Positions 11,873-47,986 of a stretch of 64,000 nucleotides of DNA are shown one piece after another. The position numbers were made by a program, and so were the translations under genes. Under the pieces are notes generated by a model. The model ran no database searches. It had not been told where the DNA came from and worked only from the letters and a program-made list of their open reading frames with translations. The stretch lies in the IMG/VR virus record IMGVR_UViG_3300036835_000480, positions 1-64,000 of that record; one strand, given 5' to 3'. The stretch is from a virus. The number at the start of each line of letters is the position of its first letter. Positions within the stretch are counted from its first letter, which is position 1.

Positions 11873-11902
11873 TGGCGTGATTGCGCCAGTTTTGGCTATA
11901 AT
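11873..11902 (+). promoter_or_regulatory. palindromic endonuclease promoter, site O1
   Basis: TGGCG-N6-CGCCA (11873-11888) with TATAAT (11897-11902). It belongs to a set of four similar sites (also 13915, 27793 and 47184) in which the -35 region is itself a palindrome. Here the -10 box is one base further away than in the other three. It reads into the GIY-YIG gene. Confidence 0.75.
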
Positions 11903-11969: not shown

Positions 11970-13040
11970 ATGCCTCGTCAGGCTAGCACACGCCAGCCCC
12001 CGGTGACGCTTTCGTGCGCCCAGTGCGGCACGCCGTTTTGGCGTCACGTCTCGGAGGTCCGCAAGAACCCACCAGGGAGCCCCGCCTACTGCTCGCGGGC
12101 TTGCTGGCGCCGCGCCATACACGCCCAGCCCCAGGTCACCTGTACCTGTGAGCACTGCGGCGTGACATTCCAGCGCTGGGCCGCCATCGTCGAGAGTGGC
12201 CGAGGCCGCTTCTGTAGCCGGGCCTGCACCAACGATGGCCGTGATTCGCGGATTGCGCTGACGTGTGAACAGTGTGGTATTACGGTCTACCGCTGGCCCG
12301 CCGAACTGCGCCGCTCCCGCGCATCCCAACATACCTACTGCTCGCGGGCCTGCGCTACCGAGGCCAAGCGCTCGTCGCTCCCTCGCATGGCCGTGTATGC
12401 CATCGTCCATCTGGCGAGTGGCCGGCTCTACATCGGGGCCACCACGCACCTCGTGCGCCGCTGGGGCAGCCACCGCTGGAAACTCGGCAACGGGTCGCAC
12501 GAGAACCCCGTCCTGCAAGCGGCCTGGACGCGCGAAGGTGCCACCGCATTCGAGTTTCGCGTGTTGGAGACGGTGAGTGATCCAACCCAGTTGCCGGTCC
12601 GGGAACAAGCGTGGCTGGACGGCTCCCATAGTGCCGAGCCGGCACAGGGCTTTAATATCCACCCCCAAGCGGAGAGCCCGCGCGGGCGCAAACAGCGACC
12701 CGAGGTCATCGCTCGGATGGCCGAGCGACAGCGAGGGCGCCCCCACTCGGCCGCGACGCGGGCACGTATATCGGCGAGCGCGATGGGGAACCAGCGCGGC
12801 GTCGCGACCTTGAGACGGTATACCGCACAGGCCCGTGCCTTGTCGGATACGCAAGTGGCCGCGATTAAACAGGCTCTCGCCGCTGGCGACTACGTCGCCG
12901 CCATCGCCAGACGGGCAGGGATCGCGACGTATGCAGTTGAACATATCGCCAGAGGGGACACCTATCGCCATGTCTTGCCCGAATTGGATGCGGCCCTGCG
13001 GCAGCGGGCCGATGGGCGCAAGCGCCGGCGGGGCTCTTAG
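11970..13040 (+). CDS. GIY-YIG homing-type endonuclease
   Basis: 356 residues, ATG behind GAAGGAG. Three CxxCG...CSRAC zinc ribbons (residues 10-135) precede a GIY-YIG core (VYAIVHLASGRLYIGATT). A NUMOD-like DNA-binding segment follows (RPEVIARMAERQRGRPHS), then a helix-turn-helix (ALSDTQVAAIKQAL, AYAVEHIARG-like). Such proteins cut a specific site to spread their own gene. It is antisense to the head genes and ends beside the MuF-like gene. Its zinc ribbons match those of the HNH enzymes. Confidence 0.9.
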   Translation: MPRQASTRQPPVTLSCAQCGTPFWRHVSEVRKNPPGSPAYCSRACWRRAIHAQPQVTCTCEHCGVTFQRWAAIVESGRGRFCSRACTNDGRDSRIALTCEQCGITVYRWPAELRRSRASQHTYCSRACATEAKRSSLPRMAVYAIVHLASGRLYIGATTHLVRRWGSHRWKLGNGSHENPVLQAAWTREGATAFEFRVLETVSDPTQLPVREQAWLDGSHSAEPAQGFNIHPQAESPRGRKQRPEVIARMAERQRGRPHSAATRARISASAMGNQRGVATLRRYTAQARALSDTQVAAIKQALAAGDYVAAIARRAGIATYAVEHIARGDTYRHVLPELDAALRQRADGRKRRRGS

Positions 13041-13051
13041 AGCCAGGCCGT

Positions 13052-13582
13052 TCATGCCTCCACCGCCTCTCCCGCAGGGATAATGTCAATGGAACATTGA
13101 CAATTTCCTAGTCAGGTTCTAGAGCCCACTTCGGGCAGAGTCCCCACCGGGACGGGGCCGCGATCGGTTAACTCCTGACATTCATCGCAGCTAGCCGCCG
13201 ATTCACTCAAGACGTTCTGCTCCATCGCATCTTCCGGAGCATCTCTGCGGATCACACCGCTATAGGTACCGCGAACCGCACCGCCGTACATGCTCAATCT
13301 TTGCATCGCCTGGGGCCCAAAATCGCCTGGCGCCGTATCTAAACCTAGTACACTCAAATACGAGTACTGCTGTCTAAGCCGACTCCCCACAAACCCCCGC
13401 GTCGAGGCATCCATCTGGTCCCAGCCGCCCCTGGCCAGCGCCGCCGACGTGACGTGCGCATTCTTGAGGGTTTGTTGAACCCCGAGCCGCCAGGAAAGCG
13501 TGTCGAGCCCCTCCGCGCGCCGCTGGCCCCAGACGGCGAGCTCGGCTTTTGTGGCCGCTACCAGGTCGTCGAGGTTACTCAC
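13052..13582 (-). CDS. MuF-like minor head protein with in-frame TGA at a Cys position
   Basis: 156 residues to TGA 13112-13114. The end has the MuF/SPP1 gp7-type C-terminal pattern CDECQELTDRGPVPVGTLP, then EVGSRT. After the TGA the frame continues LGNCQCSIDIIPAGEAVEA to a stop at 13052-13054, which is the expected family end with the TGA in place of Cys (TCLGNCxC). The family sits by the portal inside the head. An 8-bp hairpin lies just after the TGA. It could be a nonsense change, readthrough, or selenocysteine. Confidence 0.75.
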
Positions 13583-13815
13583 GCCCCGCCTCCGAACTCG
13601 GCGCGCAGCGCCGCGGGGTCGAGGTCGAGCGCCGCGCAGGTGCGGCCGATGGCCCCCTGCGCGCGGACCAGGAAGGCGCGCTGCTCGGGCGCCAGCTCGG
13701 TCGCCACGCTGAGCACCAGCGCGCAGTAGCTCTGCGTGGCGATCAGCAGCGTCACCAGGTCGTAGACCGTGCTAAGCACGGCCACCGTCTGGGCCTCTTG
13801 TTCGAGCTGCCCCAT
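13579..13815 (-). CDS. small head-cluster protein, unknown
   Basis: 78 residues with a hydrophobic helical middle (VYDLVTLLIATQSYCALVLS) and an overlap with the MuF-like start. No ribosome site is seen before its ATG. Its upstream region is occupied by the 410-base insertion holding the structured RNA, so its original start may have been changed. Confidence 0.55.
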   Translation of the reverse strand: MGQLEQEAQTVAVLSTVYDLVTLLIATQSYCALVLSVATELAPEQRAFLVRAQGAIGRTCAALDLDPAALRAEFGGGA

Positions 13816-13914
13816 AGAACGTGCGGCAGGGGACTGTCGCCTTCAGGCGACAGAGGAATGCCGTCAGCCCGCAGGCTGAGCGCGTCCTCGTCCCCGCCTC
13901 ACTCCTTCCGTTTA

Positions 13915-13944
13915 TTGGCGTCGTTACGCCAAATCTCGTATACT
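13915..13944 (+). promoter_or_regulatory. palindromic promoter O2 of the structured RNA
   Basis: TTGGCGT-CGTT-ACGCCAA (13915-13932) is a perfect 7-bp palindrome containing the -35 hexamer TTGGCG. TATACT lies at 13939-13944, 18 bases after the -35. Palindrome centre to -10 distance equals that at 27.79 and 47.19 kb. It drives the RNA locus, not a protein gene. Confidence 0.75.
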
Positions 13945-13949
13945 ACTAG

Positions 13950-14200
13950 GAGTCGGCTCTCCCTTGCGGACGGCGCCTCCGGGATGCCTCCAACCGCGTA
14001 AACGGTGACCCGACATGACCGGGGTAGCATGGCGAGCCGTGAGGCTCCCGGCGGGCAATCAGCGTACTGCCGTCCGCCCCGGCCGGGCTGCCCTAGGCCC
14101 TCGGGCCTAGCTCTCTCGCTAAGAGCATCACCCAGCCCAACGTAGGGGAGCGGGTGTCGCGAGTCCGGTGTCACGGGTCGAACGCTCCACTTACAAGCCG
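13950..14200 (+). ncRNA. pseudoknotted structured RNA, HEARO/omega-RNA-like
   Basis: No ORF. Exact pairings seen: GCGGACGGC 13966-13974 with 14069-14077; ACCCG/CGGGT 14008-14012 with 14174-14178; ACCGG/CCGGT 14018-14022 with 14165-14169; the first crosses the others (pseudoknot). Local hairpins: GAGCC-GTGA-GGCTC (14034-14047), CTAGGCC-CTCG-GGCCTAG (14093-14110), CTCT/AGAG (14113-14125), the last two closed by GGGCTG/CAGCCC (14085-14090 with 14133-14138). The segments resemble, from memory, HEARO RNA of IscB elements. No IscB gene is present in the window. Confidence 0.6.
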
Positions 14201-14225
14201 TTCGCCTTTAGGCGACGGTCGGTGA

Positions 14226-14417
14226 TCAGCGCACCTGCCAGTTATCCAGCCGCGGGTTCGGTCGCGGTGCGGGTACGGGCGGGCGCGCTGCGTTCCAGAT
14301 GGTCGCGCGCGCGATCGCCTTGTAGGTCACCGCGTAGCCGTTGCCCGTGCCCCCGGCCTTCCCGCTCAGGCGCCAGGCCCAATCGGGGAGATCCCGCCGC
14401 GGCGTGCGGGCGCTCAT
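14226..14417 (-). CDS. small head-cluster protein
   Basis: 63 residues, starting in a TGATG overlap with the gene upstream. Basic, with DLPDWAWRLSGKAGGTG near the start. It is the last head gene before the insertion. Function unknown. Confidence 0.55.
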   Translation of the reverse strand: MSARTPRRDLPDWAWRLSGKAGGTGNGYAVTYKAIARATIWNAARPPVPAPRPNPRLDNWQVR

Positions 14418-27779: not shown

Positions 27780-27808
27780 AGTATAGCGTTTCTGGCGTCA
27801 TTACGCCG
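27780..27808 (-). promoter_or_regulatory. palindromic endonuclease promoter, site O3
   Basis: On the minus strand GGCGT-N4-ACGCC (27807-27794) overlaps the -35 region and TATACT lies at 27785-27780. Centre-to-box spacing equals that of sites O2 and O4. It reads into the HNH gene and starts inside the last codons of the winged-helix gene. Confidence 0.75.
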
Positions 27809-47183: not shown

Positions 47184-47212
47184 TGGCGTCGTTACGCCAA
47201 TTCTGCTAGAAT
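47184..47212 (+). promoter_or_regulatory. palindromic endonuclease promoter, site O4
   Basis: TGGCGT-CGTT-ACGCCA (47184-47199), identical in 16 bases to site O2, and TAGAAT (47207-47212). Same centre-to-box spacing as O2 and O3. It reads into the HNH gene at 47282. Confidence 0.75.
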
Positions 47213-47281: not shown

Positions 47282-47986
47282 ATGCCTCATCAGTCTACCA
47301 AGCTCCTCCGAGCCTGTGAATACTGCGGTAGTTCGTTTTCTATCTACCCCGCCTGGCTTAGACTTGGTGCAGGCCGGCATTGTTCCAACGTATGCGCGGG
47401 CCGGTCACGCCGACGCTCATTAGCCGATCGCCTCTGGGCGCGCGTGGTGAAGACTCCCACTTGCTGGCTCGTAAGCGGCCATCTGCTGCCTAGCGGGTAT
47501 GCGCGAGTTATGCGTGGCGATGGCGATCGGACTAGTATCAGCGCACATCGGGCAGCCTGGATGCTCGCCAGCGGAGCCACGATCCCGCCTGGATACTCGG
47601 TGCTCCATACTTGTGACAATCGCGCCTGCGTCCGCAATGATGAGCCCGGTATCTATATCATCCACGGCGTTGAATATCAGCGGTGGGGGCACCTGTTTCT
47701 CGGGACCCAGCAACAGAATATCCACGATATGTATTCCAAAGGACGCGGCTACAGTCGGACCGAGTGGCATCGGGAGAGCGCCAGGGCGCATCTCGCCGAG
47801 GTGCGTAACCGCGCTCGTGGAGAAGCACATCATCGGGCTCGGCTGACGGAAGCACAAGTCTTAGCCATCAGGGCCGAGTATCTACCCTTCAAGATGACTG
47901 CTCGCATGCTTGCCGCTCGCTACGGGGTCAGCATCCCAACTATCAGGTTTATCCTACGGCGACGTATCTGGCAGCATCTGCCCTAA
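47282..47986 (+). CDS. HNH homing-type endonuclease
   Basis: 234 residues. One zinc ribbon (CEYCGSSF...CSNVC), HNH_3 core (ISAHRAAWMLASGATIPPGY, VLHTCDNRACVRN, HLFLGTQQQNIHDM) and a C-terminal helix-turn-helix (RLTEAQVLAIRAEYLPFKM). Own promoter O4 and leader hairpin. It ends in a 4-base overlap with the convergent peptidase-like gene, so it inserted just behind the lysis region. Confidence 0.9.
   Translation: MPHQSTKLLRACEYCGSSFSIYPAWLRLGAGRHCSNVCAGRSRRRSLADRLWARVVKTPTCWLVSGHLLPSGYARVMRGDGDRTSISAHRAAWMLASGATIPPGYSVLHTCDNRACVRNDEPGIYIIHGVEYQRWGHLFLGTQQQNIHDMYSKGRGYSRTEWHRESARAHLAEVRNRARGEAHHRARLTEAQVLAIRAEYLPFKMTARMLAARYGVSIPTIRFILRRRIWQHLP

What the first reader, a model, noticed from the sequence alone, without database searches (positions are those of the whole stretch)
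13816..14225. Stand-alone pseudoknotted RNA, possibly an IscB-type (HEARO/omega) guide RNA, inside the head operon
A gene-free 410-base insertion between two head genes contains a promoter and an RNA with a 9-bp exact long-range pairing (13966-13974 with 14069-14077) crossing a second long-range helix (14008-14022 with 14165-14178), plus four local hairpins, one with a GTGA tetraloop. Both ends carry TCGCC-TTYA-GGCGA hairpins as in IS200/IS605-like elements. From memory the pattern recalls HEARO RNA, the guide RNA of IscB, but the window has no RuvC-HNH IscB gene. If right, the phage carries an orphan guide that would use a host or other phage nuclease. The 16-20 bases after the predicted start (about 13950-13966) would be the guide, and the RNA shares its promoter type with the homing genes.
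Basis: partly seen in the sequence, partly recalled or inferred. Interest (0 to 1): 0.85.

Follow-up and report, generated by a model that had tools for sequence, protein, structure and literature searches.

The report
Phage transposon carrying lone TnpB guide
The gene-free stretch is a small IS200/IS605-type jumping element with no protein genes, which appears to encode only a guide RNA for a TnpB DNA-cutting enzyme that the phage itself lacks, switched on from the same promoter type that the phage uses for its homing endonucleases.

Summary
The advertised pseudoknot is at chance level, and Rfam's HEARO model does not match. But the stretch is a complete, protein-less IS200/IS605-family element (13816-14226). 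Its left end matches ends of tnpA and tnpB elements in Chloroflexota genomes and viral contigs (best E = 7e-12). It follows a YCAT-type TAM (CCCAT, also the start codon of the next head gene), and removing it restores a TGATG gene overlap. Its right end carries a hairpin plus a different pseudoknot (14127-14132 with 14221-14226), shared with seven tnpB elements and eight RNA-only elements: 96/96 pairs kept over eight distinct pairings, two compensatory changes in this element itself. It matches the published ISDra2 TnpB omega-RNA architecture. The guide would therefore be 14227-14246, not 13950-13966. A +strand promoter, with an operator found otherwise only before three of the phage's homing genes, drives it. 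No TnpB, TnpA or IscB is in the phage. Most likely it is an orphan TnpB guide that would use a TnpB in trans to cut empty alleles (RNA-guided homing); transcription and nuclease use are untested. RNA-only sister elements occur in 10 of 396 Chloroflexota-class genomes, some recently mobile; a fossil remains possible.

The parts
13811..13815 (+). Target-adjacent motif (TAM) CCCAT left of the element; on the minus strand it contains the start codon of the 78-aa head gene
   Evidence: 25 related left ends are preceded by YCAT; in 17 of 25 the CAT is the ATG of an ORF of at least 50 codons on the other strand, against 42% of control YCAT sites, p = 0.009
13816..14226 (+). Whole protein-less IS200/IS605-family element
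   Evidence: Left-end and right-end homology; removing exactly this stretch restores a TGATG stop/start overlap of the flanking genes
13816..13863 (+). Left end (LE): imperfect hairpin, inner stem 13834-13841/13846-13853, outer stem 13824-13828/13859-13863
   Evidence: 90% over 51 nt to a tnpA-bearing viral element L238, E = 7e-12; 95% to G274, E = 3e-9; outer stem differs in sequence but stays paired in L206, L207, L211
13902..13907 (-). CTCCTT: on the minus strand a Shine-Dalgarno sequence AAGGAG upstream of the gene whose start codon is the TAM, separated from it by the folded LE
   Evidence: 17 of 25 related left ends carry such a site (mostly 50-58 nt from the TAM, 86 nt here), background 8%; effect on translation is inferred
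13915..13944 (+). Promoter (TTGGCG - 18 - TATACT) with palindromic operator TGGCGTCGTTACGCCA at 13916-13931
   Evidence: Promoter scan 1 found, 0.0 expected; operator at 4 sites in the window, the other three before homing endonuclease genes
13951..14246 (+). Predicted transcript: omega-RNA-like scaffold to 14226 followed by the guide
   Evidence: Start placed 7-8 nt after the -10 box; 3' module by homology; start and end of the transcript are inferred
14085..14138 (+). Helix H1, 14085-14090 with 14133-14138, enclosing two extra hairpins (14093-14110, 14112-14125)
   Evidence: H1 in 16 related elements: 80/80 cells paired, 8 distinct pairings, 0 of 20000 permutations as good
14127..14226 (+). 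Pseudoknot ATCACC 14127-14132 with GGTGAT 14221-14226 (positions -100..-95 with -6..-1 relative to the guide)
   Evidence: 96/96 cells paired over 16 elements, 8 distinct pairings, 2 of 20000 permutations as good; two pairs changed on both sides in this element
14193..14220 (+). Right end (RE): ACAAGCC plus hairpin 14198-14218
   Evidence: 84% over 44 nt to viral RNA-only element L234; model R2, built from tnpB elements only, matches 14151-14226 on +, E = 0.004 in 154 kb
14227..14246 (+). Predicted guide CAGCGCACCTGCCAGTTATC, the flanking phage sequence
   Evidence: Position set by the scaffold end and the restored empty site; no second match to its first 16 nt in the window with up to 2 mismatches
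14226..14417 (-). Flanking 63-aa head gene; its stop codon TGA abuts the element
   Evidence: ORF and translation
13579..13815 (-). Flanking 78-aa head gene; its start codon ATG is the TAM
   Evidence: ORF and coding potential

Best explanation
The stretch is a protein-less element of the IS200/IS605 family that inserted next to the start codon of a head gene. It carries a dedicated, self-promoted gene for a TnpB-type omega-RNA whose 3' guide is the sequence flanking its right end. With a TnpB (and, for transposition, a TnpA) supplied in trans by the host or a co-resident element, the RNA would direct cleavage of phage genomes that carry the empty site CCCAT/CAGCGCACCTGCC, so that repair copies the element in. 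It would thus work like an RNA-guided homing locus, co-regulated with the phage's protein homing endonucleases. Shown here: element identity, boundaries, TAM, promoter, conserved scaffold architecture, absence of tnpA, tnpB and iscB in the record. Inferred: transcription, TnpB binding in trans, cleavage and homing.
For: LE homology to tnpA/tnpB elements of Chloroflexota and of viral contigs, with Pfam confirming TnpB at three loci and TnpA at one. RE homology. Exact empty site. The H1-pseudoknot-RE module is shared with seven tnpB elements and eight RNA-only elements with compensatory changes, in the position known for ISDra2 omega-RNA (PMC10097598). Own +strand promoter; the RNA-only relatives in genomes carry TATAAT-like boxes 17-20 nt before their conserved RNA start. 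Three 97%-identical RNA-only copies sit at three sites in two genomes and start right after TTCAT, so such elements move. 7 of 8 genomes with RNA-only elements also encode TnpB, and in two of them a tnpB carries the same 3' module. TnpB acts as homing-like retention and gene drive (PMC8612924; PMC11870625).
Against: No TnpB, TnpA or host is known for this phage. The 5' 135 nt of the predicted RNA does not match the conserved 5' domain of the other RNA-only elements (model R1). H1 here encloses two extra hairpins. The RNA body is not more stable than shuffled sequence. R2 also matches the ends of HEARO elements, so the module alone does not fix the strand; the promoter does. The pseudoknot strands were picked by eye at a homologous position. 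No transcript data.
Confidence: 0.68

Rival explanations
1. A fossil or passive miniature element (MITE/PATE): the ends are kept for TnpA-driven transposition, the interior is decaying, and no functional guide RNA is made.
For: 5' part of the RNA unrecognisable; fold at chance level; short elements with the same left end and little interior exist (L239, L241).
Against: The pseudoknot is intact with two compensatory changes, the scaffold end and TAM are intact, and a clean promoter with the phage's own operator sits in front.
Confidence: 0.2
2. A domesticated guide RNA for another purpose, for example a nuclease-dead TnpB repressor (TldR-like) acting on phage or host genes, or a guide against rival phages.
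For: Phage-encoded TldR-guide cassettes exist (PMC13418256); the RNA is under the phage's own operator.
Against: The guide is simply the insertion-site flank, as in an ordinary transposon, and has no other close match in the phage; no TldR or TnpB domain in the record.
Confidence: 0.08
3. IscB-type (HEARO) guide RNA on the minus strand, transcribed with the head operon, guide first.
For: HEARO elements share this end hairpin on the opposite strand; the head operon is transcribed on the minus strand.
Against: No HEARO match on either strand up to E = 10, while the same model finds HEARO in four sister loci at 111-139 bits; no IscB domain; the only promoter is on the + strand.
Confidence: 0.03
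4. Ordinary intergenic regulatory DNA of the head operon (terminators plus a promoter) with accidental pairings, as chance tests on the reader's helices would suggest.
Against: LE and RE homology to many mobile elements and the exact empty site.
Confidence: 0.01

Closest known systems
TnpB omega-RNA / reRNA of IS200/IS605 elements (ISDra2; PMC8612924, PMC10097598)
   Same: Right-end-derived scaffold, hairpin at the end, pseudoknot joining the last scaffold nucleotides to a loop about 100 nt upstream, guide taken from the flank, TAM on the left
   Different: No tnpB in cis; [quoted passage not shown] 5' part not derived from a tnpB gene
Non-autonomous IS200/IS605 derivatives (PATEs / MITEs, e.g. 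Haloquadratum, PMC3119063)
   Same: Ends of an IS200/IS605 element without protein genes
   Different: Carries a promoter and a conserved guide-RNA scaffold; sits in a phage under the operator of its homing genes
HEARO / IscB omega-RNA (RF02033), including stand-alone copies
   Same: OMEGA guide RNA at an IS200/IS605 end; same end hairpin read on the other strand; stand-alone copies known (from memory)
   Different: No HEARO match, other strand, guide at the 3' end
Phage TldR-guide cassettes (PMC13418256)
   Same: TnpB-derived guide RNA in a phage
   Different: No TldR protein here; guide is the insertion flank
RNA-only elements found here (L220, L251, L258, L265, L268, L269; viral L234, L337, L344)
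   Same: LE, TAM, H1-pseudoknot-RE module and no protein (promoter box seen in the genomic ones)
   Different: All but L234 share a conserved 5' RNA domain (model R1) that the window element lacks

Membership tests
   No match up to E = 10 on either strand; model works on sister loci
   No PF14239 in the 65-kb record; host unknown
   Promoter and scaffold order put the flank at the 3' end
IS200/IS605-family element, non-autonomous | LE and RE homologous to ends of tnpA/tnpB elements | tested here: met
IS200/IS605-family element, non-autonomous | Insertion 3' of a short TAM, no target duplication, clean empty site | tested here: met
   CCCAT TAM of the YCAT type; joined flanks restore TGATG overlap; no natural empty allele was available
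IS200/IS605-family element, non-autonomous | Mobility by a Y1 transposase in trans | not testable with these tools
   No Y1_Tnp in the record; sister elements are mobile
TnpB omega-RNA | RE-derived 3' scaffold with end hairpin | tested here: met
   R2, built from tnpB elements only, matches 14151-14226, E = 0.004 in 154 kb, 2e-5 in 651 bases; R2 also matches HEARO ends
TnpB omega-RNA | Pseudoknot between the last scaffold nucleotides and a loop about 100 nt upstream | tested here: met
   -6..-1 with -100..-95; compensatory changes; ISDra2 -5..-3 with -105..-103
TnpB omega-RNA | Encoded at the 3' end of a tnpB gene | tested here: not met
   No TnpB domain in the record; stand-alone
TnpB omega-RNA | Binds TnpB and guides cleavage next to the TAM | not testable with these tools
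   Needs biochemistry
RNA-only family defined by model R1 | Conserved 5' domain | tested here: not met
   No match in 13850-14250 with filters off
Group I intron / IStron | Match to Rfam group I intron model | tested here: not met
   cmscan of the window and of 13700-14350 up to E = 10

The most novel reading that the evidence does not exclude
Protein-less IS200/IS605 elements carry dedicated, self-promoted TnpB guide-RNA genes, a class of RNA-only selfish element that borrows TnpB in trans, and this phage has placed one under the operator of its homing endonucleases, giving it an RNA-guided homing locus next to protein-guided ones.
Probability: 0.4. Interest if true: 0.82.

Novelty: new variant of a known kind. 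Interest (0 to 1): 0.63.

Why it matters
TnpB is the ancestor of Cas12 and acts as a homing-like nuclease for its own transposon. A protein-less element that keeps only a guide RNA would be a parasite of TnpB: the guide gene moves and the nuclease is borrowed. Such elements are easy to overlook because they have no reading frame and, as far as tested here, no Rfam family, yet the 5' RNA domain found here (model R1) occurs in 10 of 396 Chloroflexota-class genomes searched and in phage contigs. In this phage the guide sits behind the same operator as three protein homing endonucleases, which makes RNA-guided homing in a phage directly testable.

Tried and rejected
Rfam scan of the whole window and a permissive scan of the locus: no family. 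DNA search in the phage collection: nothing significant. Close relatives by portal or terminase protein: none in viral contigs. Wider terminase and head-protein searches gave distant relatives; the closest head modules (L123, L124, L126, L148) have no comparable gap and no homologues of the three small head genes, so no natural empty allele was obtained. The operator as a probe in viral contigs: chance hits only. A decayed homing gene: no protein or DNA remnant. tRNA/tmRNA: none. The match L221 across the right junction lies inside another gene and was taken as coincidence. Counting every locus with the right-end pattern as TnpB-type was rejected after four of them proved to be HEARO on the other strand.

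Full report
Observation. The window is part of a 65,223-base virus record, 70% G+C. Between a 63-aa and a 78-aa head gene, both on the minus strand, lies a non-coding stretch of about 410 bases. The claimed RNA body 13945-14217 has a folding z-score of -0.86; the strongly structured part is 13816-13915. So the pseudoknot named in the finding is not evidence of anything. The promoter is real (1 found, 0.0 expected), and its palindromic operator TGGCGTNNTTRCGCCA occurs at four places in the window, the other three before homing endonuclease genes: a GIY-YIG gene at 11970-13040, an HNH gene at 47282-47986 and an HNH-type gene near 27706-26937 on the minus strand (the last one named from its sequence only).

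What it is. Rfam gives nothing, HEARO included. Terminase relatives pointed to Chloroflexota and actinobacteria, so the stretch was searched in 396 genomes of the class of the best Chloroflexota hit. Its left 50 bases matched mobile-element ends (E down to 3e-9), followed in those genomes by tnpB or tnpA; Pfam confirms TnpB and Y1 transposase. A pattern for this left end found 17 stretches in viral contigs, most with a long tnpB-like reading frame after the end, one with tnpA, and some with no protein. The best single match of the window's left end is 90% over 51 nt to the tnpA element L238, E = 7e-12 in 4 Mb. The right end matches the viral RNA-only element L234 over 44 nt.

Boundaries. Related elements follow a YCAT motif. 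Here CCCAT (13811-13815) precedes the element, and CAT is also the start codon of the 78-aa gene. Cutting out 13816-14226 joins the flanks to a TGATG overlap of the 63-aa and 78-aa genes, the arrangement also seen between the two preceding genes. In 17 of 25 related insertions the TAM opens an ORF of at least 50 codons on the other strand (control 42%, p = 0.009), so this family tends to sit against start codons. 17 of 25 left ends carry a Shine-Dalgarno sequence facing that start codon, usually 50-58 nt away and 86 nt here, against 8% background. I infer that the left end brings a ribosome-binding site for the gene it abuts; in the fold of the minus strand the AAGGAG lies at the base of the left-end stem, partly paired next to the AUG, so whether this helps or hinders translation is open.

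The RNA. Seven tnpB elements (L235, L236, L237, L245, L246, L247, L249) and nine RNA-only elements (window, L220, L234, L251, L258, L265, L266, L268, L269) share a 3' module: helix H1, a loop just before its 3' strand, a right-end hairpin, and a final six bases that pair with that loop. The pairings seen are GTCAAC/GTTGAC, GTCAAA/TTTGAC, GTCAAT/GTTGAC, GTAAAC/GTTTAC, GTCAGC/GCTGAC, GTCAGA/TCTGAC, GTAAGC/GCTTAC and, in the window, ATCACC/GGTGAT: 96 of 96 cells pair, and 2 of 20000 permutations do as well; H1 pairs in 80 of 80. I chose the strands by eye at a homologous position, so these counts are descriptive. Elements whose right end finishes in GTCAC (L214, L219, L233) belong to another type and were not counted. 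In ISDra2 the last scaffold bases (-5 to -3) pair with -105 to -103 (PMC10097598); here -6..-1 pair with -100..-95. A model built only from the tnpB elements matches the window at 14151-14226 on the + strand (E = 0.004 in 154 kb; 2e-5 in 651 bases); it aligns the right end well but not H1, which here encloses two extra hairpins.

Strand. HEARO elements carry the same end hairpin on the opposite strand, and R2 matches their ends too, so the module does not fix the strand. The promoter does: it is on the + strand in the window, and RNA-only relatives in genomes have a TATAAT-like box 17-20 nt before their conserved AAGGCACT start. The guide is therefore the 3' flank, 14227 onward.

RNA-only relatives. 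A model of the 5' domain of L220, L251, L257 and L258 (R1) finds 14 places in 10 of 396 genomes (the weakest matches are borderline) and two viral contigs, but not the tnpB-bearing loci tested. Three copies 97% identical over the compared 210 bases sit at three sites in two genomes and begin right after TTCAT, so these elements move without proteins of their own. Seven of eight such genomes encode TnpB, and in G393 and G283 a tnpB carries the same 3' module. The window element lacks the R1 domain, as does L234; the two may form another branch (weak similarity around GTAAACGGT).

How it most likely works. TnpB with its right-end RNA cuts the empty donor site and so keeps or spreads the transposon (PMC8612924), and acts as a gene drive on multicopy plasmids (PMC11870625). 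Phage genomes in a co-infected cell are a comparable multicopy pool. The phage element would supply only the guide and rely on a TnpB from the host or another element (none in the record). Its promoter shares the operator of the phage's homing endonucleases, consistent with joint control of homing functions. Not shown: transcription, TnpB use, cleavage, spread. A decayed element that still moves by borrowed TnpA is the main rival; the double compensatory change in the pseudoknot and the intact promoter speak against it.

Novelty. Non-autonomous IS200/IS605 elements are known (PATEs, PMC3119063), stand-alone HEARO RNAs are known (from memory), and TnpB-derived guides in phages are known as TldR cassettes (PMC13418256). 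A self-promoted TnpB-type guide with no protein, in a phage, under a homing operator, I did not find in the held literature; key papers on IscB/TnpB (Altae-Tran 2021, Meers 2023) were not held, so priority is not settled.

Noticed in passing
window 11873-11888, 13916-13931, 27793-27808 (minus), 47184-47199: A palindromic operator TGGCGTNNTTRCGCCA overlapping a sigma-70 promoter precedes three unrelated homing endonuclease genes and the guide RNA; the regulator is unknown.
   Followed up: partly
window 13112-13582 and 11970-13040: The GIY-YIG homing gene lies at the 3' end of a 156-aa head gene (phrog_24776) whose counterparts in distant relatives are about 200-220 aa, so it may have truncated it.
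   Followed up: no
L214, L216, L219, L220, L234, L236, L238, L241, L247, L248, L253, L260, L267, L268, L271 and window 13816-13915: The left ends of this transposon family carry a Shine-Dalgarno complement facing the start codon used as TAM: possibly a portable ribosome-binding site that makes insertion at start codons harmless.
   Followed up: partly
L261-L274, L337, L344: A conserved RNA domain (model R1: AAGGCACTC-hairpin-AACGGTT...ACCAACTGA-stem-GGTT-hairpin-GTAAA-stem) in RNA-only IS200/IS605 elements; L220, L265 and L268, tested, match no Rfam family.
   Followed up: partly
L286, L317, L335, L362: Viral contigs with HEARO RNAs and no TnpB detected next to the shared end hairpin; IscB was not searched for there.
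   Followed up: no
L318 (262-294, 2670-2702, 5139-5171, minus) and L349: Several copies of the same element end within one viral contig, apparently repeated short non-coding elements.
   Followed up: no
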